Below, piece by piece: positions 18,047-47,456 of a stretch of 47,460 nt of DNA (position 1 is the first letter of the stretch; each line of letters opens with the position of its first letter). The translations under genes were made by a program, and so were the position numbers. The DNA comes from Gloeopeniophorella convolvens (lineage: Eukaryota; Basidiomycota; Agaricomycetes; Russulales). The DNA is taken from positions 1-47,460 of the forward strand of contig WTXD01000113.1 in assembly GCA_022496205.1 (NCBI GenBank), in the 5' to 3' direction. The notes below the pieces were generated by a model, which saw only the letters and a list, made by a program, of their open reading frames with translations, made no database searches and was not told where the DNA came from.

Positions 18047-21000
18047 TCAGTGGCTTACTCGATTGAGAGGCTTCATAACCAGCACGTTGCCCTCCCACAC
18101 TCGGTGAATGGCATGGTAGATTCGGTGCGAGCTAGGCAGGATGGTGACCCCGTCCTCTACCTTGGATGACCAGAGCCCTGCGCCAAAGTCGGAGTATTTT
18201 GCAAAGGGGTCCTCCAGGTGCGACGGAAGTTTTTGATATCGCTGGATGGCGAGAAATGTAACTTGGGTTTCTCCTTGCTGCATGGAGAATATCTCGCGAA
18301 CTAAGCCAGGGACTAGCGTTCGGTCGCCAGCAGCAGGTTGAAAAAAAACAGTGCCGTGTTTCTTTGACTGCCGGTGCGTTGTGACCTCTTGTCCGCAAAT
18401 GACCTGCCTTTTGTGGAGAGTTGCGTTCTCCAGCGGATGTTGAGACAAGCTAAGCTCGCGCCTCAGGTCCGCTTCGCTTTCTTTGAAGGCGTTAGCCGTC
18501 ATGGCGTCCAAACAGGAGGCAGATTGCTGAGTTTCCGCGGCCATTACTGCCTCAGTTTTGCTTGGCTCCAGACCTAGCATGTGCATGTCGCTCTGCAAGG
18601 TGCCTTTTCGTTCGTTGCCATAGCAGCATTGCACGATCTTGACGCTCTCATCCCAGGTGTCAGATTTCTCCAAGCACTTGATTAGCCCTCGCATGTTTGA
18701 CTCCGCCCCGAAGGACATCATCATTGTGCGTTCCATTTGCCCTGATGTATAGGTGTGAGGTTGTGCACGCTTGTGCTCGCAAGCGGATAACTCACATAGT
18801 TTGCCATTTGTGTTAGTTTTTTGGAGGCGGCCGATGACTCTCTCGAAAGGAAACATCCACCACCCATGGGCAGGCCCATACCGCCTGAGGAAGAACCCGA
18901 ACAACAAGCTATTGTAGTGATTTGGCTTCAATGGCTTATCCGGTTGCAAACCCTTCAAACAGTTGAGGTAAGCCTGCATACTGCGCTCATATGCTTTGAT
19001 ATGGGTTTCAGATGTTCGATGGGATGTCCCCCATCGAACGGCGGTAGCAAGGAAAAAAGTACTTTGGACCAGCGTTTGCATGGCCCCAACAGTCTTCCCC
19101 CTCCTGCAGCGCCTCAGGTGAATCTGGAGGAGAGACACAGGGAGGTCGAATTCGAAGCAGGACCTCCATTCATCAGCTTTGAGCTTCCCATGAGCCAGCT
19201 CACCCAGGTTTGGTGGCGGAGCAACGTGCCAATTTGGACGAGTCGTTTCAGCTATGTCAGCGCGGATTGCCTTCCAATCATTTGGGGAAAGAAGTATTGC
19301 ACGAGCTAGTCGACGAGCCTTTTTCTCTTGATGCTGCTCTTCCACAAAGGTGTCTATGATGGCTGATCCCAGAATGTAATCGAAGACGGAGGGCGAAGGC
19401 GTTGCCTGTCCCCTAGAGGTTTCCATAGGAGGCAACTGGCGACCAGCCTGACGAGAGTTAGCCCCATAATTGAATTAAGTAGGCAATCTGCGCTGAGTCT
19501 AAGTTGCTCACCATAAGCAGTGCTAACAGCTCTGACTTTCGAGCCCTGTGCCGCCCATGCATGTTAACTCCTTCCTCGTGGCAAAGCGCCGTCAGGGCTT
19601 TCACCCCAATGGCGCGGAAGGCAGCTGGCGTTGTGCCTGTGGTAAGTAGAAGCCGTTTTGCAGCCTCTATTTGCTGAATGATTCCTTCCGTAAGGCCAAA
19701 CCCCAATGCCCTTGGGTTGCTTGCAGAGTCCATTCCCATCACCGTTCGGCTATGGTTCTGGAGCTGGCCAAGGAAGAGGTTGTGCATTCCATCAATGACG
19801 ACCATCTCGACAGGGTCCCAGTACGGGAGCTCCATGAGGATAGAGTGGCGCACACCAGTCCTGTTATAGAAGCGCCGCTGCCCCTCATTCGTAGGAGTGT
19901 TAAGCCAAGCGGCGGCATCGGGTGCAATAAGTGAGTACGGCTTCATCTTCCATATATCTGGGTTGTCGATGACCACCTTCTTCTGGTCAAGGAAGCTCTT
20001 CGTCCCTCTGATCTTCCTTGCCATCGGTAGGTCATTGACTGATAGTATAAGTGCAGACCGAACAAGACGCCCATCAGGACGCGTGTAGGTCTTGGGATAC
20101 CTCGCACCAGTCGCCCATGAGCGCTGCAAGACCCCTACCAAAGGCCGTAGAAAATTGTCTAACAGCACTCCAGCAGGTTCCCGTGGTCCGGGGATAAGGC
20201 CCACCAGGTAGAGGTTTTCCGGCTTGTAGCGTATGTCGGGTGGCAATAGCGGGCAAGATAAGACTATTGATCCTGTGGATGCCGACTTTCCAGCCATCTT
20301 GTTAAAGTAAGGGTTGAAGAAATCAACTGACAAGCTCCAGAGAAGTCGAAGCTCTCCTTCTTCTCCGCCTCCTAAGAAAGGCTTGCCGTCCTGCCCCTTG
20401 AAGCCCTGGATGGCATCTCCGTCAATGATGTCTTCCAGCACTGTATCGCTACGAGGGCGTCGAATGGCCTTTTCCACAGCCTCCTCTATGTCAGGCCGTA
20501 GTAGCAGTCGGCCAACCCATTCGTCAAAATCCTGCACTACGAAGGGCCGCACTGGCACAGGTCCACAATAGCCATTTCGGGACGCAAGCTTGGTGAGGCG
20601 CCTTTTACACTCACAGTGAAAAGGGTAGGTATAAAAACCCCTCCTTTCGCTGCCCCCTGGCGGGTATACTCGGTTGCAATCTGGGCAGGCTGCATAGGTG
20701 ATGGTAGAAGGATCCAGTCCTAGAAGGCTTCTTGCCGTTCTAACGTCGTCGGGCAGCTGCTCAGCTATTGACTTGTCTTCTAGAGAGCGGGACAGCCCTC
20801 CAAACATGCTCTTCAGGGTCCTTAAGGTAAGATTGCTAGCTTCTCGTGTGGCTCTTCCCAAGATGTGAGGGGCAAGGACTAGGACTAGGCTTCTCTCAAT
20901 AAGCGGGCTGCAGTATTGAGGTAGTAGGCGGAGTTGGACACCTAGTAGAAGAACAGACGTGAGTCAGCTGCTTGGCTCAAGACATGTCTAGCTAACCTTT

Positions 21001-26109: not shown

Positions 26110-27266
26110 TCATCTAACCACAACAGCCTCCCGTTGCCACGTGTCACATGTAGCGTGCCGCGTGCTGCCCCGGCCCACCGGGCCTGCTTACGTACACGTG
26201 GCACGCCGAGGGTCCGTTCCGCTGTCGCGTGCGGCTCGCAGCCGCTGATCCGTCGTTGTTGAACGTTCGCCCGGGCGCCTACTTTTCGCATAAAACCCCC
26301 TCCCCGTCCCCGTGCCCCCTCGCCCCCTTTGCCAACACGCGAGCCCTGCCTGAGCGAAGGGGAGCCCGTGCCCGGGCGGCTGCACGCAGCGGCCGCCTGC
26401 CCCATCAGCCTCCATAGGACGCTGTTGGCGGCATCTCAAGGCGCTACGCCCATAGCGGGCGTCGCGCCTTGATTCGGGCACATAAGGTGCGTTTCCCGCG
26501 CCTTCCCTCCGTTCGTGTGCTGACTCGGCCCCTCGTCCTGCGGCGGGGGCTCATTACAGATCCCACGCCCCATTCGCCGCTGCCGCCGCTGCCCCGGACT
26601 TGCCGCACGGAAGACATTCCGCGGCGCGGGCGAGTCTGCATCGGCTTTAGACCCCCCCCCCCCCGGTTGTTCGACTGGCCGGTGGCGCGTCAGGGTCAGC
26701 TTCAGAATGCTCTGCGGCCATGCGTGCGGGCCATGCGCTGCTGCGTGGCCGCTTCAACGACGAGCTCGCGGGGCAAGCGGAGGTGGTGGCGGGGGCACAG
26801 AGGACGCAGGGCGTGTCGGCGGCGGGGCTCGCGTGCTGTGCGCGGGGCGCGTGTGGCAGCAATGGTAATGGCGGCAGGGGGAGGGCCGCTCAGCACCATC
26901 GCCAGGGCCGTAGGTGACTTTGGCCCTAGCTTTGACAGGCAGCCCGTCCATGGCTGTGTCCGCCTATCCCCACGCCCCGCCCTCCCCCTCCGCTGACGGC
27001 CGTGCCCGGCGGGGGTCGCGCAGCTGCGTGTTAAAAGCCTCGTGCGCTCCGAGTCGGGTATGTCCGCATGTGTCGATGACCCGGGCATGCACGCGCGGGG
27101 CCAGCAGCACGTACGCTGCGTGGATGAGCTGGTTAACGAATGCTGACAGCAGGAGGGCGCGATTCAGGCGGCACGTCGGCGCGCGCGCGCCTTGTGCTTT
27201 AGGGGCGCAGCAAGTTGCCGCGGCAAACAAAGCAGTTGCCATGTACCGGCAGCGCGCGAGTGGCGC
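26110..27266. other. Left flank of the LTR element
   Basis: Very GC-rich with a 13-C run at 26652-26664. Several long frames exist on both strands because of the composition. None has a recognisable domain. Joined to the right flank (33090 onward) this was one continuous stretch before the LTR element inserted. Confidence 0.45.
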
Positions 27267-28160
27267 TGATACCCTAAGCCCGGCGCAAGGGCTGTTCGTA
27301 GCACAATGCCGAGGTGAGTACCGCAAGTGCGTGGGGAAGTACTTAGCTAGAAGACCATTGACCGAGGCGTTGGCCGGAAGTGCCGAGTGCGCCGCAATAC
27401 GTTGACTGATGCGTACGCTTCGGCCGCGCAGTAAGCCGGAAGTGCGAGCGGCGCTGCTGCTGCTAGGGCGACGCGTGCAAGATCGAAGTAGGCCGGCCTG
27501 TGTGCCGGACGTATCTCCGTAATGCCGCCACTAAAGGCCGTTAGTGCGAACGGTCAAATACGCAACATACAACTGAGTCGGCCCGAGCGATGGCCGAGAG
27601 CGTGAGCGATCCGGCCTAGTGGCGGCCGAGTAGTAGTGAAACGATGTACAATGAAGGCCAACTTAGGCCGGAGGCAGAATGAGAAGTGGACTATCCCAGC
27701 GGGGGAGTTTCTTGTTGTGCCCTAAGGCCGAGAGAGGGTTTTATACAAAGGCGAGCCTCTAACCGCAGGCCGCACACGGAAAGGTATAGTAACTCCGTTC
27801 AACCACTCATCCTGCGTTCCGTCCTGAACCGATGCTACTGCTAAGTCGAAACAGCCGTCTTGTGCCAGGGCTGCAATGCCGAGGCTTAGGCCGAGGTTTC
27901 TGAGCGATCGACCGAGGTATTGGTACGCTGCGGCACGTCTTGCTGATCGCGCTCCAGCCGGAGGCTTTAGTAAGCTACTCGGACACTGCGCAGAGTCGCG
28001 TTCCACGAGTGCTAGGGCTTCAGAGCTGTACTAAGTCGGAACTGAGGGCCGAGAGGTCGGAACTAAGCGGAACAAGAAGGACTTAGCTAGGCAATACTAT
28101 CCGGTCGTAGAATCGCAAAATCGGTCCATAACACGGTCTGTACGCCGCAGTGGCGTATCA
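27267..28160 (-). repeat. LTR (3' LTR in element orientation)
   Basis: 894 bp, TGATAC..GTATCA. Differences from the other LTR: one A fewer in the AAAGG run near 27653, C versus T near 27957, G versus A near 28123. It carries a TATA box on the minus strand (27745-27739) and one copy of the structured unit (27529-27628). A 94-codon frame (28006-27722, -) is intact in both copies but follows from their identity. Confidence 0.92.
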
Positions 28161-28174
28161 TCATCCTCCCAACT
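28161..28174 (-). other. Probable polypurine tract 1
   Basis: Minus strand AGTTGGGAGGATGA directly abuts the TGATAC of the left LTR, as a plus-strand priming tract should. Confidence 0.6.
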
Positions 28175-28180
28175 GAAATC

Positions 28181-28198
28181 CTAACTGTCCTCAGTTAG
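28181..28198. other. Perfect stem-loop beside the purine tract, copy 1
   Basis: CTAACTG-TCCT-CAGTTAG: a 7-bp perfect stem with a 4-nt loop. The same hairpin recurs at 29172-29189, again next to a purine tract. Confidence 0.75.
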
Positions 28199-28889
28199 TC
28201 GTTCGCAAAGCCATCGATAGGCCGTAGTTGGTGTGCAAGTGGTTGGTGTCTTTCGGTCGAGTTTCTGAGTTGGCTACTAAGCCAGAGGTGCTTGATGGAA
28301 AGGTCTTGAAGTGCGAAGGTCAATATTGTAGCTGCAACGTTGCAAGGGCTTTGTCCGAAGCTCGAGTTATAGCGGCTGAATGGGCGATCGTTAGCGCAAG
28401 CGGTCAAGTGCGGCACGTACGGTGAACTCGGTTCTATCGGTGGTTGTAAGAACGACGGAATCGGCCGGCGTGTTGTCGAGAACGACTGTGAGTGAGACTG
28501 AAGTAAAGGCCGCTTTGTTGCCTTCGAAGTACGGCGTTGAGCGCTCTGGGAATCGCTAAGACCGGCACGAGTCGTTGGCTGAGTCTGCTCTTCGAAGGCC
28601 GAGTGCCTAAGCCGTGTTCTGGTGTCCGCGCGAAGGAAATACAAGTGTAACTTCAAGAAAGGGGTTGTGCCCCATAATTCGATGATAGTGACTGAACGAA
28701 GAACAATTAGTACAAGCGGTAAGTTGTGCTACGCACGCGTGCTTAAGCCGCTTCGATGGTCGGCGGTCCAAGCGGATCGACCGCGATGCTGCTGAGAAAA
28801 GCCGAAACGAAGTAAAGGGGTAGGCCGAGTGACTTGTTGTTCGGCAACGTTGTTCGACCACTAAGTGCTATAGCTTCATGTGCCATGCC

Positions 28890-29151
28890 TAATGATGGAC
28901 TAGATCAAAGAAACTGCTAAAACTGTGGGATCATGCGAGATAGAACAGAGATGACTTAGCGGCTACAGGAAGCTGAGTATGCATTGATAGACCGAGACTG
29001 GAGCCCTATATCAAGGATGTCGCAGCCGCCGACCGGCTCGCACCTCATGATACGGCTTACTCCACTGATCTCGACTATGGCCTGCCTGTCAGTTACTCGA
29101 AGTCGCAAAAATCACAGCCGAAGCTAAGAGTACTATGCCGGGGCGGCACAT
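28890..29151 (-). repeat. Diverged partial LTR relic within the interior
   Basis: Read on the minus strand from 29151, the sequence resembles the start of the intact LTR: TG, then GCCG and GGC elements, then a GATTTTTGCGA matching GATTTTGCGA of the LTR. It directly follows the second purine tract. No other LTR portion is clearly kept. The left limit is approximate. Confidence 0.45.
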
Positions 29152-29165
29152 TCCTCCTCCCAACT
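29152..29165 (-). other. Second polypurine-like tract inside the element
   Basis: Minus strand AGTTGGGAGGAGGA, part of a 39-bp block (29155-29193) that repeats the block beside the left LTR (28164-28202) with one mismatch. It is followed on the minus strand by a diverged LTR-like stretch. Confidence 0.6.
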
Positions 29166-29171
29166 GAAATT

Positions 29172-29189
29172 CTAACTGTCCTCAGTTAG
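29172..29189. other. Perfect stem-loop beside the purine tract, copy 2
   Basis: Identical 7-bp stem and TCCT loop to 28181-28198, inside the repeated 39-bp block. Confidence 0.75.
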
Positions 29190-32173
29190 TCGTCATTCGG
29201 CCAATGCAAGGCCGAGGCTGCTGTCGGTTTAGTGTCTGTCGGCCGGGGGTCTACTAGGCTCGGCCGTGAGTTCGAAATATCTACTGTCGGCATAATTGAA
29301 AATGAAGATTTGATGGTCGCAAGGTTGTACAAAGGTATAGGGCTCAGCCCACAATGATTGGGTCATAAATACTAGACGAACAACGATTAGCGCGTGCGGT
29401 CAAGTGCGAAACGTACGGTCGGTTCTGCCGCCTCGATGGCCGAGAGAACGCGTGGATCGGCCGACTCGTTCTTGAGTAATGCCAACTCGAAGTGGCTGGT
29501 CGGTACTGCATTATTTCTTCGAAGTACGATGTGGCGTGTGTTGTGCCGATGCTAGTGCCGACGGTAGGCCCTAGCTGCATCTGCTGTGCTACGTGCGCGT
29601 TGTTCGGTCGTGTTTTGACGTCCGCGCGCTAGAAATAAAGTCGAATGGGCCCGGCCCAGTAGTCAAGTCATAACTTCTAAACAAACAACGATTAGTGCGA
29701 TCGGTCAATTGTAGTACGCATAGTTGGCTCGGTCCTATCAGTGACCGGGGTTACAGGCGAGTCGGCCAAGTCGTCCCCGAGAAATACTGAAACGAAGTAA
29801 CTGCCTGAAGTGAAATACTGCGTGGTCTAAGGGACTCTGCCCAAAGAATATCTTCTATAAACTGAACAAAACATGGTAAGCGCAAGCGGTAAAATGCGGA
29901 GCGTACGTCTGGTTCGGCTGCTTCTTATGCCGAGGCTGTGTGCGACCCGGCCCACGTCTGGCCGGAGCATATCGCACGACTGGCAAGGCCGACTATTTGC
30001 CCTCGGACCACCACTCTGAGTGGCCCGCGCGGTTGCCTAGGTTCCCGTCGAACTTCGGCCGATTCCGCTGCCAATTCTTGCGCCGATCGGTTGTCATTTG
30101 AAGGGCGCGCGAGGTAAACGGTGCTGCTGCTTTCTAGGAGGGGTTCTGCTCCTTGTACGACTTATAGCGACTGAATGACGAAACATTAGTACATGCGGTC
30201 AACTGTGGAGCGTACGACTGCTTCGGCCGCTTCTATGGCCGAAGTTACGTGCGAGCCGGCCTATGACTTGGCCGGTGTCGACTCAATAACTTGAAACTGA
30301 CCAGGCCGCCTTGTGCCTTCGAACCACCGCATGGCGTGGTCCGAGCGAATGCCTAGGCCCCCGTCGGGCTTCGACCGTCTTTGCTGTCAATTCTTGAGTG
30401 GCTCGGTCGTCATTTGAAGGACGCGCATGGTAAATACTGCCGGTTGGGCTCGGCCCAATCCTCGGTGAATAGCGACTAAACGAAGAATGATAAGTATAAA
30501 TGGTGAAGTGCGTCACGTACGCGTGGTTCGGTCGCTTCGATGGCCGGAAGTACATCGAGATCGGTCTAGTGGTTGCCGAGGTACGCAGGAAGGTCGACTC
30601 GGTCGCTTCGGTGGTTGAGAGTACAACGAGATCGGCTGCGCGGCTGCCGAGGAATATCGAATCGACATGAAGGTTATGGCTGAACGTTTGCTTCTGAAGC
30701 GCGACGTAGGATGTGTTGAGCGTGTGCTAGAGCCGACGCGGTGCTCCAGCCGACTCTGCTGCCGATGTTTCGTGCGGTTCGGTCACCAACTGATGTCCGC
30801 GTGAGGGGGACAAACGTGGGGTGGGCTCTGCCCAATGTTTTTGCAATATCGACTGAACGAAGACGAATTAGCGTAGACGGTTAAGTGCGACACGTACGAC
30901 GCGTTTGGTCGGATCAATGACCGAGAAATAGTGCGGATCGGCCGAGCGATGGCCGTGAACGATCTAACATGAACAACGTGAAAGACTTGGTGGCTGTGCT
31001 CGAAGTACGATGCGGGTCGGTCCGCGCATGCGTTGCGTTGATGCGAGCCTAGTGCCGAGCTCGCTGCCCGAATTCTGCGTGATTCGGCTGCGTTCTGCGG
31101 TCCGCACGAGGGAACTACCATTGAGGCTTTCTAGGAGGGGCTCTGCCCTCGGTTTGAGCGATAGCGACTGAACGAACGACGATTAGCGCAAATGGTAAAG
31201 TACGTGACGCACGCGTTTCTCGGCCGCTTCGGTGACCGAGATTACGCCGGAATCGGCTGAGTCGTTGTCGAGAATGAGCAGGAATGAAGTTGAATGGGCT
31301 CTGCCCAGTAATTGTACAATAACACCTGAACGAAGAACGATTAATACAAGCGGTGAATTGCGTAACGTACGCGTCGTTTGGCCGCATCGGTGGCCGAAAG
31401 TACAGCTGGATCGGATAAGGTATCGTCGTAAACGGTTGAAGTTAGTATAAAGCAATGGGCAGTCGTTTGCCCTCGAAGTGTCGACCGAGATGTGCCGGGA
31501 ACACGCTAAGGCCGGCGATGTACTCTAGTGGCGTCGTCCTTCGAAAGGCCGAGGCGTTCTGTCACGATTTGTTGCACGTGCGCAAGATCGACCTTGAGCC
31601 GGGCTTGGGCCGATGATCGTCGAATAACAACTGAACGAAGAACGATAAGTATAAACGGTGAAGTGCGCTGCGTACGCATGATTCGGCCTTTTCCGATGAT
31701 CGAGAGTGCACCGGAATCGGTCCGGTGGTTGCCGCGCTATGTCGAAACGAGCTGAAGGTGTTATGCTGACTATTGCCTAGAAGTGCCGACCGGTCTTGGA
31801 ACTGCTGGGAACTGCGCTCTCTTCGGATGCTGCTGTCAGCTGTGTACTGTGAGTCGAGGCGGAACGGTGTTTTGGCACTGAGCCGACGGTAGTGTGCTCG
31901 CTTGTCCTTGATGCGAGGGTTTGATCCGTGGCGGGACGGCAACTGATTGATCATGGCTTGCGGCTCCAAGCTCCTGGAAGCGTTAGTGAACTACTCGAAA
32001 TTAATTACTTACACTCGTATCTGCCTTGCTCTTGCTTCGGCCGGCCGATGAGCACGTAGCGAACATAATATCCGGGCGGATGCTGGAACTGTCTAGGAAC
32101 TTTTCTACTATAAGTCAGTGAAACGAAGAAGGACGATGCCTTGCTAAGGGGTCTTCTGAGCTTTTATGACTCC

Positions 32174-32191
32174 CCCTCGCGGTGGGCTCCA
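32174..32191 (-). other. Probable primer-binding site
   Basis: On the minus strand the interior begins TTT then TGGAGCCCACCGCGAGGG, three bases after the LTR. A TGG start right after the LTR is what a tRNA 3' CCA primer needs. Which tRNA it would be I cannot tell. The other end of the interior has no such TGG. Confidence 0.6.
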
Positions 32192-32194
32192 AAA

Positions 32195-33089
32195 TGATAC
32201 CCTAAGCCCGGCGCAAGGGCTGTTCGTAGCACAATGCCGAGGTGAGTACCGCAAGTGCGTGGGGAAGTACTTAGCTAGAAGACCATTGACCGAGGCGTTG
32301 GCCGGAAGTGCCGAGTGCGCCGCAATACGTTGACTGATGCGTACGCTTCGGCCGCGCAGTAAGCCGGAAGTGCGAGCGGCGCTGCTGCTGCTAGGGCGAC
32401 GCGTGCAAGATCGAAGTAGGCCGGCCTGTGTGCCGGACGTATCTCCGTAATGCCGCCACTAAAGGCCGTTAGTGCGAACGGTCAAATACGCAACATACAA
32501 CTGAGTCGGCCCGAGCGATGGCCGAGAGCGTGAGCGATCCGGCCTAGTGGCGGCCGAGTAGTAGTGAAACGATGTACAATGAAAGGCCAACTTAGGCCGG
32601 AGGCAGAATGAGAAGTGGACTATCCCAGCGGGGGAGTTTCTTGTTGTGCCCTAAGGCCGAGAGAGGGTTTTATACAAAGGCGAGCCTCTAACCGCAGGCC
32701 GCACACGGAAAGGTATAGTAACTCCGTTCAACCACTCATCCTGCGTTCCGTCCTGAACCGATGCTACTGCTAAGTCGAAACAGCCGTCTTGTGCCAGGGC
32801 TGCAATGCCGAGGCTTAGGCCGAGGTTTCTGAGCGATCGACCGAGGTATTGGTACGCTGCGGCACGTCTTGCTGATCGCGCTCCAGCTGGAGGCTTTAGT
32901 AAGCTACTCGGACACTGCGCAGAGTCGCGTTCCACGAGTGCTAGGGCTTCAGAGCTGTACTAAGTCGGAACTGAGGGCCGAGAGGTCGGAACTAAGCGGA
33001 ACAAGAAGGACTTAGCTAGGCAATACTATCCGGTCGTAGAATCGCAAAATCAGTCCATAACACGGTCTGTACGCCGCAGTGGCGTATCA
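32195..33089 (-). repeat. LTR (5' LTR in element orientation)
   Basis: 895 bp, almost identical to 27267-28160. On the minus strand the TATAAAA box at 32674-32668 lies about 415 bp inside the LTR. The hairpin-bearing unit (about 32457-32556) therefore falls downstream of it, in the expected transcript leader (R/U5). Confidence 0.92.
32668..32674 (-). promoter_or_regulatory. TATA box of the LTR promoter
   Basis: TATAAAA on the minus strand in GTATAAAACC, repeated at 27745-27739 in the other LTR. It sets the direction of transcription from right to left. Confidence 0.6.
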
Positions 33090-34756
33090 GCGCGCTGGGT
33101 GTGTTCATCGAGGCAGGGGGCGCGGACGGGCGCAGTGGCCGTCAGCCCGTTCGACTTGCTGTGCAACCTGATCAGCTTTCTGCGTGACCCGGGCTGGTTG
33201 GATGGGCAACTGCCTGCGCGGCCCCCGTTCCTAGAGTCCCTCGCCGAGGTGCGCCTGCTCCTCCGTTTGCAAGGCAGGCGGGTGACGATTGCGTGCTAGC
33301 GCAGAACGATCGGCAAGGCGGCGTGGCAGCAACGCCACGGCATGGAGGAGCTATCCACGGGGCATTCCCGCCGTCGCCGGGCCTCCTGCAGCCACGAAAA
33401 TCGCTTGCGTGGCTTGAGAACGCCTTGCCCGGGGCGGGAAGAGGGCTGGCCCGCCCAACTTCGAGCCCGCGTGGTGTGTTGAGCCGGACAACGTCGACGG
33501 CACACGCCGCCTGCTTCACGGCACGTAAGGCCAGACGCAGGTAGGCCGCCCCGCGGCACGGGGAATATGTGCTATGGCTCGCCGGGGAGCTTCCGCACGG
33601 GCCCCGTATAACGCTGTGCTGCCGTGCCTTGTGGACAACGCGCAGAGCCTGAGCGCTGAGCTGCCGCTAGCTGCTGGAGAGCGCGGGTCGGTGGCAGACT
33701 GCAGAGGAGATTTGTTTTAAAGTCAGACAAAGTTCACCCCGTTGCTGTGCCGGGGGTGCAAAGGGCAGCCGGGGACAGAGGCAGAACAGGAGAGCCGGAC
33801 TGCTTAGTGCCGTACAGATCATGTTGCCTCACGTGCAAAGCGCTTCTCCACAATTGCCTTCGGCGCCTAATGGGCCGCAAATCTTTCCTTTTACCTCGCC
33901 CTTCTTCTGGATCCCCTCCTGCTCCATGCCCCGCGAAACTCGTCAACTTCCCCGCCCGAAACCCCGCCCGAAAGCACCGGCAGAATTAGGGGATGCGGGC
34001 CAAGGTTCAGATTTATGGGATGCGGGCCGAGAGGTAGCGTCGCTCCCCGCCAACTGCGCGGAGCCGCTGCTGACTGGATTGGTGGCCTATGCAGTCACAG
34101 AAGGCATTCATCCATACGTCGTGCGACCTTGCTGAACTCATACGAGCTTTCCTGGAAGACGAGAAGGAAGCAGCAATTCTCGATGGCTATCAACCCCTCT
34201 GATATGCGCTTGATGCGGACGCCGTGATCTTTGACTCCTTCGCCATGGGCCTGGGGCCCGATGACGCTGGCAAGGCTGTCGAAGGCGGCATAGGGGTGGC
34301 TCCTTTGAGCGGCCTCATGTTGGCCATGAGCATCGAGGGCAATCAGCGCAAGTCAACCGCCCACGTTGAGGCAAGCGAGGCCGTTGCCCTGGATGGAGTT
34401 CAACGCACCGCAGAGGGTTTGCCAGCGAATCGCGGTTTGCCGATGCGGGATGCGCTCGAGCCTGGTCGGCGTCCTTCGCAGGACGGGGCCAAGTCGGGGG
34501 GCAAAGTCCAACTGCCAGGTGAGGCGCCAATTCTGCCGGAGCTCCTCGAGCTAACATGGCGGGACCAACCCCATAGCCCCAAAATTCAGTGTCGACCTGC
34601 GTGAAGTGCCTCCTGCTCGAGAAAAGCACCCGGGAAAGGGCTCTTCCAGGCAGCGACCGCGCAAAAATCACCCCTGCCCCCCAAAGCCTTCCGCCTTCGT
34701 GTATGTGCCCCGGTTCCCCATCCAACCCTTTTATCTCGATGGTAACGCCCCTGCAG
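33090..34756. other. Right flank of the LTR element; possible 5' exons of the TET/JBP gene
   Basis: A frame at 33821-34135 (+, ATG) and a second at about 34101-34604 (+) have protein-like composition. The second contains an in-frame TGA at about 34200 (reading ..DGYQPL, stop, YALDADAVIFDSFAMG..). One or both may be upstream exons or their relics, but I cannot join them to the next exon with confidence. Before 33700 I see nothing. Confidence 0.4.
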
Positions 34757-46385: not shown

Positions 46386-47456
46386 TCATCCTACTAAACC
46401 CATTTGCCCAGAGAGCAGGGAGTGGCGTGATTTGGCAAGTGACTTTGTTAAGCCATCTGCTACCATGTCCTCTGTCTTGGTGCGAACCAGATCTACGACG
46501 TTGTTTTGAACGTATTCGCGGATCTTGTGGTGCTTTAGCTGGATATGTTTGGATCTCCTGCCAGTAACTGGATTGCTGGCGAGGTCAACTGAACCTTTGT
46601 TGTCGCCGTGCAACAGGATTGGATCTTCAACATTGTATCCTAGCTCAGAGTAAAAGCTCTGATACCACGCGGCTTGGTTGCCAGCGTCGGTTAAAGCCAT
46701 GTACTCGGCTTCAGTGGTGCTGAGGGCGATGGTCTTTTGCTTGCGCGAGGACCAAGAGATTGCGCCTTCTGCTAGAAGGAATACGTAGCCAGAAGTGGAA
46801 CGATAGTCGTCTGGGTTGTCTCCCCAGCTTGAGTCGGAGTAACCATAAAGTCCGACCCCATTGGCCCCATCATAGCGAATGCGATAGTTAATAGTCCCTT
46901 TGAGGTATTTGAGGACATATTTTGCAAGGCTTAGATGTTTTGGTGAGGGATTTGCTGCGTACTGGGCAAGGCGTCCCACAGCAAAGGAAATGTCCGGTCT
47001 TGTGCCAAGGTTTGCATAGAGCAAACTTCCGATGAGAGATTGATAGTACTGTCTCTCTTCAGCGGATGCCTCCTTATCTGACTTGACAAGGTGCACTTCG
47101 GCGCCGGCAGGAAGGGGGGTGAGGTTAGGATCGGCACCATCCAGCTTGAATTGCTTCAGCTTGCGGAGGATATATCCTGACTGGTCGATCTCTAGGCGGC
47201 GTAAGGGTCGATCGCGAGTGATGCGAACCCCGAGGTAGGACTGGATTTCTCCAAGATCCGTCATCTCATAGCGCGCACTAAGAGCAGTCTTGATGCGAGT
47301 AACCTCAGATAGGGAGTTCCCCATCAAAGTGATGTCGTCAACGTATAGAATAATGATGATTTTTATATCCCCCCCACATTGAAGATACACATAGATCCCA
47401 GCATCTGAGACCGTGCGCGTGAAGCCGAGTTCCTCAAGAACTCCATGGAATTGCAA
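46386..47456 (-). mobile_element. Ty1/copia Pol, C-terminal part (RT end and RNase H)
   Basis: The frame is open from the window edge to a stop at 46386 (356 residues seen). It shows the RT active-site motif LYVDDITLMG (about residue 37 of the visible part). The copia connection and RNase H follow (DSSWGDNPDDYRSTSGYVF, IALSTTEAEYMAL, HGDNKGSVDLASNP, HIQLKHHKIREYV), then a terminal DGLTKSL. The order RT-RNase H at the 3' end marks Ty1/copia. Gag, protease, integrase and most of RT lie beyond the window. There is no internal stop, so this copy may be intact or recent. Confidence 0.93.

What the first reader, a model, noticed from the sequence alone, without database searches (positions are those of the whole stretch)
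28346..31750. Covarying hairpin units tiled through a non-coding retroelement
About eleven units in the interior and one in each LTR share a 45-nt core and three small hairpins. Hairpin 2 is TCGGCC/GGCCGA in the LTR, CTTCGGCC/GGCCGAAG at 30221-30244, TCGGTC/GACCGG at 29729-29748, TTGGTC/GACCGA at 30905-30924 and TTTGGCC/GGCCGAA at 31377-31398. Hairpin 3 is CCGGCC/GGCCGG at 29947-29965 and 30256-30275 but GCGGTC/GACCGC at 28763-28784. Hairpin 1 is GGGC-nnn-GCCC with changing loops (TCA, CCG, TCT, TCG), GGGG/CCCC at 28661-28673, and TTGGGC/GCCCAA at 30444-30458. Both sides of the stems change together, which points to selection on structure, in RNA or as a protein site. One unit lies in the leader downstream of the LTR TATA box. 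I know of no described element with such an array.
Basis: partly seen in the sequence, partly recalled or inferred. Interest (0 to 1): 0.87.

Follow-up and report, generated by a model that had tools for sequence, protein, structure and literature searches.

The report
Hairpin-repeat array in non-coding retroelement
A young fungal jumping element that codes for no protein is filled with about twelve diverged copies of a piece also found in its own end repeat, each carrying small hairpins; the array is real, but paired compensating changes in the hairpins are mostly not seen, and only weaker signs point to folding in the element's RNA.

Summary
The array is real. Window 27267-33089 is a young LTR element with no long ORF: LTRs of 894 and 895 bp with 3 differences, TGATAC...GTATCA ends and a 4-bp GCGC target duplication. 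It holds 11 interior units plus one per LTR. All 69 genome matches to a core pattern lie in this LTR family or a ~70%-identical relative family.

The main claim, covarying stems, is mostly not supported. None of 17 stem pairs covaries (E<0.05) in an R-scape-like test; full compensation would have given 7. For hairpins 2 and 3, arms from different units pair about as well as arms from the same unit. Only hairpin 1 shows compensation (arm-swap p 0.0004-0.025). The stems are nevertheless not chance: they are more conserved than loops and spacers, and the alignment fold has z about -4.6 on both strands. One strand-specific sign favours sense RNA: G.U-keeping changes (27) are as frequent as expected, A.C-making changes (11) fewer than expected (26; P about 0.002).

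Best reading: a LARD-like non-autonomous element whose array probably expanded from an LTR piece, with weakly selected RNA hairpins, perhaps for recognition by borrowed proteins. The function is inferred.

The parts
27267..28160 (+). 5' LTR (894 bp), ends TGATAC...GTATCA; preceded by TSD GCGC
   Evidence: 3 differences from the 3' LTR
32195..33089 (+). 3' LTR (895 bp), followed by TSD GCGC
27488..27633 (+). unit in the 5' LTR, upstream of the TATA-like box (U3)
   Evidence: nhmmer E 6.6e-25, in the training set; the repeat finder
32416..32561 (+). same unit in the 3' LTR, identical sequence
27739..27749 (+). TATA-like TTTTATACAAA of the LTR
   Evidence: read from the sequence; promoter role inferred
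28161..28202 (+). leader / primer-site region with hairpin CTAACTG-TCCT-CAGTTAG, shared with other LTR sequences of this genome
   Evidence: role inferred
29152..29193 (+). second copy of the leader region (95% identical)
28339..28483 (+). interior unit 1
28655..28799 (+). interior unit 2
29333..29479 (+). interior unit 3
29640..29784 (+). interior unit 4
29825..29969 (+). interior unit 5
30134..30278 (+). interior unit 6; the only unit with a single-sequence fold below z -3 (z -4.5 plus strand, -2.9 minus)
30439..30583 (+). interior unit 7
30594..30654 (+). truncated unit; a full-length unit at this place in the C4 and C360 copies
30816..30960 (+). interior unit 8
31131..31275 (+). interior unit 9
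31289..31433 (+). interior unit 10
31594..31739 (+). interior unit 11
31748..31998 (+). stretch after the last unit that aligns with LTR 27729-27982 (z 4.9, best of 11 comparisons): probably LTR-derived

Best explanation
A young, non-autonomous LTR retroelement (large-retrotransposon-derivative, LARD-like) of a fungus. SHOWN: LTRs, target duplications, solo LTRs, no long ORF; the interior is a decayed tandem array of ~310-nt modules, each opening with a ~145-nt conserved unit that also sits in the LTR upstream of the TATA-like box. SUGGESTED: the array grew from a piece of LTR, because the unit is shared by both LTR families and the stretch after the last unit also aligns with the LTR. SUGGESTED, WEAKLY: the small inverted repeats are kept as hairpins in the sense transcript, since changes that leave a G.U pair are tolerated and changes that leave an A.C mismatch are depleted, and hairpin 1 shows some compensation. 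INFERRED: the transcript carries about 12 such units (11 interior plus the U3 unit of the 3' LTR) and these act together as cis-acting RNA recognised by proteins supplied in trans by an autonomous element, such as packaging by its Gag.
For: Element anatomy and TSDs; interior found in 6 places of this genome, elsewhere only LTR matches; all 69 listed matches to a core pattern (control 1) lie in this family or the ~70% relative; units and modules; LTR-like stretch after the last unit. Stem conservation; RNAalifold z about -4.6 against column shuffles. Cells that pair 81.3% vs 79.6% in shuffles (2 of 500 reach it), covariation score 0.228 vs 0.212 (27 of 500). Wobble asymmetry: GU 27 vs AC 11, column-matched null 25.7 vs 25.9, P 0.002; Fisher against non-stem columns 0.003-0.008; 30 vs 13 on 46 units, p 0.014; C>T 31 and 31 cells in the two arms, G>A 15 and 10. 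Hairpin 1 arm swap p 0.0004-0.0010 with the LTR unit and 0.0024-0.0059 without it for the two wider arm definitions, 0.021-0.025 for the narrowest. Columns that are stems or conserved between units vary less between copies: 17 of 715 vs 97 of 2472 outside units, P 0.052.
Against: 0 of 17 stem pairs covary where full compensation would give 7. Pairs with a change on both sides: 3, fewer than the shuffled mean 4.4 and than 5 of the 6 slid structures, one of which has 8. Arms of hairpins 2 and 3 swap between units with almost no loss. Single units fold only slightly better than shuffles (mean z -0.62 plus, -0.46 minus). The alignment fold is as strong on the minus strand and the second half of the module also scores somewhat below shuffles. 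A blind arm-swap scan gives 5 of 496 window pairs at p<=0.01, the chance number, hairpin 1 among them. Whole units are not less variable than spacers between copies: 59 of 1562 vs 97 of 2472. For hairpin 1 alone the wobble ratio on 46 units is about 5 to 5. The leader shared with other LTR sequences comes without the unit core, so the unit is not a general packaging signal of that group. No RNA data.
Confidence: 0.42

Rival explanations
1. By-product array. The modules arose by template switching or unequal recombination during replication of the element, as proposed for tandem repeats in plant LTR elements, and have no function; stems look conserved because they descend from an ancestral sequence rich in TCGGCC / GGCCGA words.
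For: TCGGCC and GGCCGAG words are enriched all over the element; [GA]CCGAG lies inside units only as often as length predicts (8 of 24, expected 8.5). No covariation. Units as variable as spacers between copies (59 of 1562 vs 97 of 2472). Copies differ by deletion or duplication of parts of the array. Array origin by abnormal strand transfer is discussed for Ogre elements (passages of PMC7004042).
Against: Conservation between units is uneven: stems and part of the core about .70, second half of the module .47. A.C-making changes are depleted. Conserved columns vary somewhat less between copies (P 0.052). TCGG[CT]C and GGCCG[AG] are somewhat more frequent in units than length predicts (14 of 27, expected 9.6; 13 of 28, expected 9.9).
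Confidence: 0.33
2. DNA-level binding array. Each unit is a cluster of inverted-repeat binding sites for a host DNA-binding protein, acting as enhancer in U3 and as enhancer or insulator array in the interior, like the 12 Su(Hw) sites in the 5' UTR of Drosophila gypsy.
For: The unit lies upstream of the TATA-like box in the LTR of family A, and at the collinear place in LTRs of family B. The most conserved part includes an unpaired core (about 54-85) as well as the stems. Arms are conserved as words rather than as pairs. Fold strength is equal on both strands.
Against: A symmetric DNA site should tolerate C>T in one arm as often as G>A in the mirrored place of the other; C>T 31 and 31 cells against G>A 15 and 10, events 27 vs 11. 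The core pattern was found nowhere else in the genome, so no host set of such sites is seen.
Confidence: 0.22
3. A known RNA: ribozyme (retrozyme-like), tRNA-like or other described RNA family repeated in the element.
For: Non-coding LTR elements with ribozymes are known (recalled, no call); part of the core loosely recalls a type II tRNA D-arm (own reading).
Against: Rfam cmscan at E up to 5 gave 2 matches, both far below their gathering scores (20.6 and 15.6 bits against 40); ARAGORN found no tRNA in the window.
Confidence: 0.03

Closest known systems
Large retrotransposon derivatives (LARDs)
   Same: LTRs with a non-coding interior, dependent on another element (definition recalled); in fungi 3 families with 118 copies, one intact and recent, are reported for Laccaria bicolor (passages of PMC3411680)
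   Different: Interior here is a decayed tandem array of one module that is also part of the LTR
Ogre/Tat plant LTR elements with tandem repeats in the 3' UTR (PMC7004042, passages)
   Same: Tandem repeats inside an LTR element
   Different: Ogre arrays lie downstream of gag-pol; here there is no coding region and the array fills most of the interior
Drosophila gypsy insulator, 12 Su(Hw) sites in the 5' UTR (PMC2374998, passages)
   Same: About a dozen degenerate sites in an untranslated part of an LTR element
   Different: 340 bp of short sites in AT-rich sequence for one protein; here ~145-nt units spread over 3.4 kb with GC-rich inverted repeats and no known binder
Retroviral packaging signals (general knowledge; search listing only)
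   Same: Hairpins in the untranslated RNA of a retroelement recognised by Gag
   Different: No array of a dozen such units known to me; role here not tested

Membership tests
LTR retroelement | Direct LTRs ending TG...CA | tested here: met
   TGATAC...GTATCA, 894/895 bp, 3 differences
LTR retroelement | Short target-site duplication of fixed length | tested here: met
   4 bp in 10 of the 10 insertions with both intact outer ends read (3 with interior, 7 solo); an 11th, diverged copy (L024) reads CCGG/CTGG; copies with only one end read were not counted
LTR retroelement | tRNA primer site and purine tract | tested here: inconclusive
   By eye no TGG-type tRNA 3'-end site after the LTR and no clear purine tract; the leader after the LTR is shared with other LTR sequences
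LTR retroelement | Solo LTRs elsewhere | tested here: met
   7 solo LTRs with matching TSDs
LARD (non-autonomous, non-coding interior) | No gag-pol coding capacity | tested here: met
   longest ATG ORF in the interior 130 aa, minus strand; 153 aa with a TTG start
LARD (non-autonomous, non-coding interior) | Mobilised by a coding partner with matching ends | tested here: inconclusive
   Family C shares LTR ends and leader and has exon-like ORFs, but no RVT_1, rve or RVT_2 match between its two C393 LTRs (the first two scored 150 of 172 and 150 of 194 candidates)
Covarying structured RNA family | Significant covarying pairs above phylogeny | tested here: not met
   0 of 17 pairs, simulated full compensation 7 of 17; own R-scape-like script, not R-scape itself
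Covarying structured RNA family | Stems more conserved than spacers | tested here: met
gypsy-insulator-like DNA-binding array | Array binds a DNA-binding protein and blocks or drives promoters | not testable with these tools
   needs binding and reporter assays
Hammerhead/retrozyme or other Rfam family | Match to a covariance model over its cut-off | tested here: not met
   window 27000-33300

The most novel reading that the evidence does not exclude
A non-coding retroelement that carries a dozen copies of a hairpin-bearing RNA module taken from its own LTR, kept by selection on the sense RNA as a multivalent signal that captures the replication proteins of other elements: a parasite whose whole body is its recognition signal.
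Probability: 0.15. Interest if true: 0.75.

Novelty: new variant of a known kind. Interest (0 to 1): 0.42.

Why it matters
How non-autonomous LTR elements win the proteins of their helpers is little understood (own knowledge). A young element whose interior is a repeated piece of its own LTR, with hints of RNA-level selection, offers a defined sequence to test. If the array turns out to be inert, it is a clear case of LTR-derived tandem repeats growing inside an element, and a caution that matching arms seen by eye are not covariation.

Tried and rejected
Single-unit folding gave no consistent signal. An outer extension of hairpin 2 (columns 77-90 with 113-124), suggested by RNAalifold, pairs worse within units than between them (p 0.99). 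A fourth small hairpin in the core (columns 54-64 with 68-79) shows no compensation (p 0.41-0.60). The idea that 28800-29151 is a decayed LTR 3' end was not supported (z 0.2). Pol III box or tRNA-like reading: considered from the core words, no tRNA found, not pursued. Ribozyme or known RNA: no Rfam match over cut-off. Relatives of the family C exon product: none at E<=0.001, no Pfam match over its cut-off. The covariance model R1 was built but could not be run on the genome and was not used otherwise. The 20 'power' simulations are identical by construction and count as one. The first script printed nothing and was redone; one search stopped with an error at its third alignment, after answering for the first two. 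The species was not identified. R-scape was not available; my test follows its published idea (recalled). Several tests were tried on the same 13-46 units, so P values near 0.002-0.02 are suggestive only.

Rows dropped before counts: of the nhmmer hits, one search removed L024 (it overlaps L023), partial hits (L032's among them) and 19 exact duplicates, leaving 46; alignment A1 took 28 of these, picked by me. Searches used 11, 12 or 13 paralogous units as labelled there. column conservation used the 11 interior rows without the LTR unit; one search used 7 full modules of 12.

Literature: five answered searches showed no described element with such an array in their listings; only passages of three papers were read, so absence from print is not claimed beyond these.
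Full report
What is there. Window 27267-33089 is bounded by two direct repeats of 894 and 895 bp that begin TGATAC and end GTATCA, differ at 3 places and are flanked by GCGC on both sides. Of the family's insertions in the 36.7-Mb genome whose two intact outer ends were both read, 10 of 10 (3 with interior, 7 solo LTRs) carry a perfect 4-bp duplication, every one with CG in the middle; a diverged eleventh (L024) reads CCGG/CTGG. Of six further copies of which one end was read, five show NCGN and one (L018) ACAA. CG makes up 7.0% of dinucleotides in the window outside the element. The interior was found in 6 places (C17, C360, C4, C198, C372, C312); the LTR search gave 37 matches, 11 of them at 68-75% identity, which define a second LTR family, B. 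The interior has no ATG ORF over 130 aa. This is a young, non-coding LTR element.

The array. Twelve units were aligned by anchors taken from the repeat finder and the sequence. A profile made from them finds, besides its own members, a truncated copy at 30594-30654, a full unit at that place in C4 and C360, and units in family B LTRs. Six of 10 spacings are 305-316 nt, and whole ~310-nt modules align, the first ~145 nt best. A 31-place pattern of the core with up to 2 mismatches has 69 matches in the genome against 1 for the control; by their places all 69 fall in family A or B. The stretch after the last unit (31748-31998) aligns with LTR 27729-27982 at z 4.9, the best of 11 comparisons; a second, LTR 27810-27939 with 29152-29268, gives z 3.6 and the other nine z 1.6 or less. 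Together these suggest, but do not prove, that the array grew from an LTR piece.

Covariation. On 28 units (A1) and on the 46 distinct full units, a G-test with average-product correction against a tree-preserving null gave no pair of columns at E<0.05; the best pairs (E 0.6 to 1.2) are not complementary. The 17 stem pairs have E of 250 or more; in a simulation that compensates every stem change on the same tree, 7 of 17 would be found. Pairing of arms from the same unit against arms from different units is .903 vs .894 (hairpin 2).736 vs .734 (hairpin 3) and .883 vs .812 (hairpin 1) in the 12 window units. With register-tolerant duplex energies the arm-swap p is 0.21-0.32 for hairpins 2 and 3 and 0.0004-0.0059 for hairpin 1 with the two wider arm definitions (0.021-0.025 for the narrowest), with or without the LTR unit. 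None of 50 slid placements, some of which overlap stems, reached 0.05 (lowest 0.056), but a blind scan of 496 window pairs found 5 at p<=0.01, hairpin 1 among them, as chance predicts. In the fixed-column count, 3 pairs have changes on both sides, fewer than the shuffled mean of 4.4 and than 5 of 6 slid structures; cells with such changes (16 vs 9.1), cells that pair (81.3% vs 79.6%) and the covariation score (0.228 vs 0.212) are above the shuffles (2, 2 and 27 of 500 reach them), a control that ignores relatedness.

Evidence that the stems still matter. Mean pairwise identity among interior units is .75.71 and .66 for stems 1-3.59.62 and .42 for their loops.40 and .46 for two spacers.70 for core columns 54-85 and .47 for the second half of the module. 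RNAalifold beats column shuffles at z -4.60 (plus) and -4.85 (minus) for 13 units and -4.51/-4.61 for 28; for 7 full modules the first half gives z -2.9/-2.4 and the second half -2.0/-2.2, so structure is not confined to the unit. Columns that are stems or highly conserved between units differ between element copies at 17 of 715 places, outside units at 97 of 2472 (P 0.052); whole units at 59 of 1562, no difference. Single units fold at mean z -0.62 (plus) and -0.46 (minus), 22 other windows of the element at about 0.

Which strand. Because the stems are near-palindromes, C>T in one arm and G>A at the mirrored place in the other have nearly the same sequence context, so mutation bias should give them equally; a symmetric DNA site would also treat them alike, whereas sense RNA would tolerate C>T (G.U) and not G>A (A.C). 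Reconstructed events: 27 to G.U and 11 to A.C on 28 units, against 25.7 and 25.9 for column-matched non-stem pairs (P 0.002); 22 and 6 on 13 units (P 0.001). On 46 units 30 and 13 (p 0.014), with hairpin 1 alone about 5 and 5. In cells, C>T 31 and 31 in the two arms, G>A 15 and 10. Non-stem columns showed 52 C>T and 92 G>A events in the first of three reconstructions, so there is no general excess of C>T. This is the best evidence for RNA and it is modest; it comes from one set of related sequences and after several tests. An asymmetric protein site could also give it.

Relatives by leader. Just after the 5' LTR lies a short stretch with the hairpin CTAACTG-TCCT-CAGTTAG, repeated at 29152-29193. 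With up to 3 mismatches it also occurs at four places (C117, C315, C393 twice) that are not family A. On C393 it follows an 866-bp LTR (TGATATCCC...GTATCA); a 99%-identical LTR in the same orientation lies 12.6 kb further on, so that, if both belong to one element, it is 13.5 kb long and has exon-like ORFs near its start. No RVT_1, rve or RVT_2 match falls between these LTRs (the first two scored 150 of 172 and 150 of 194 candidates, the third 120 of 120). A shorter pattern finds the site at 15 further places with 1 or 2 mismatches, against 2 for the control. The core pattern has no match at any of these, so the leader, not the unit, is what the group shares.

Comparison with known kinds. By anatomy this is a LARD-like element; LARDs are reported in Laccaria bicolor (passages of PMC3411680). 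Tandem arrays inside LTR elements are known in plant Ogre elements, where illegitimate recombination or abnormal strand transfer has been proposed as their origin (passages of PMC7004042). An array of a dozen protein sites in an untranslated region is known from the gypsy insulator (passages of PMC2374998). I found no described element made of hairpin modules of its own LTR in the listings.

Verdict. RNA-level selection is possible and is favoured by the wobble asymmetry; a function in recognition by helper proteins is an inference. A by-product array is nearly as likely.

Noticed in passing
L004-L016 insertion flanks; window 27263-27266 and 33090-33093: All 10 four-base target duplications with both ends read have CG in the middle (NCGN), although CG is 7% of dinucleotides nearby: a target preference for CpG. 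Of six copies with one end read, one (L018, ACAA) lacks it.
   Followed up: partly
G000 C393:23001-36494 (5' part in L054): Two LTRs 12.6 kb apart, perhaps one 13.5-kb element, sharing LTR ends and leader hairpin with this one, with exon-like ORFs of unknown family (one rich in charged residues, coiled-coil-like by eye) and no recognised reverse transcriptase or integrase between them.
   Followed up: partly
G000 C19:43237, C36:25742, C301:253591, C357:164436, C375:37323, C399:38152, C400:16801, C4:59385, C21:618, C138:14797, C395:76380: 11 of 15 further places with the post-LTR leader sequence at 1-2 mismatches, the ones whose variant recurs; perhaps more LTR families sharing one unusual primer site.
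   Followed up: no
window 28161-28202: The sequence after the 5' LTR is no ordinary tRNA 3'-end primer site (no TGG), so priming may be unusual; part of its complement recalls a tRNA D-arm (own reading, untested).
   Followed up: no
window 27267-32194: TCGGCC, GGCCGA and GGCCGAG words are enriched about ten- to twentyfold over dinucleotide shuffles throughout the element, inside and outside units.
   Followed up: partly
window 18047-20861 and 46386-47456, minus strand: Long ORFs: two adjoining ones that look like a large DNA transposase of the CxC2/KDZ type (recalled, not searched) and a Copia-type pol end (RVT_2 match at 47112-47447).
   Followed up: no
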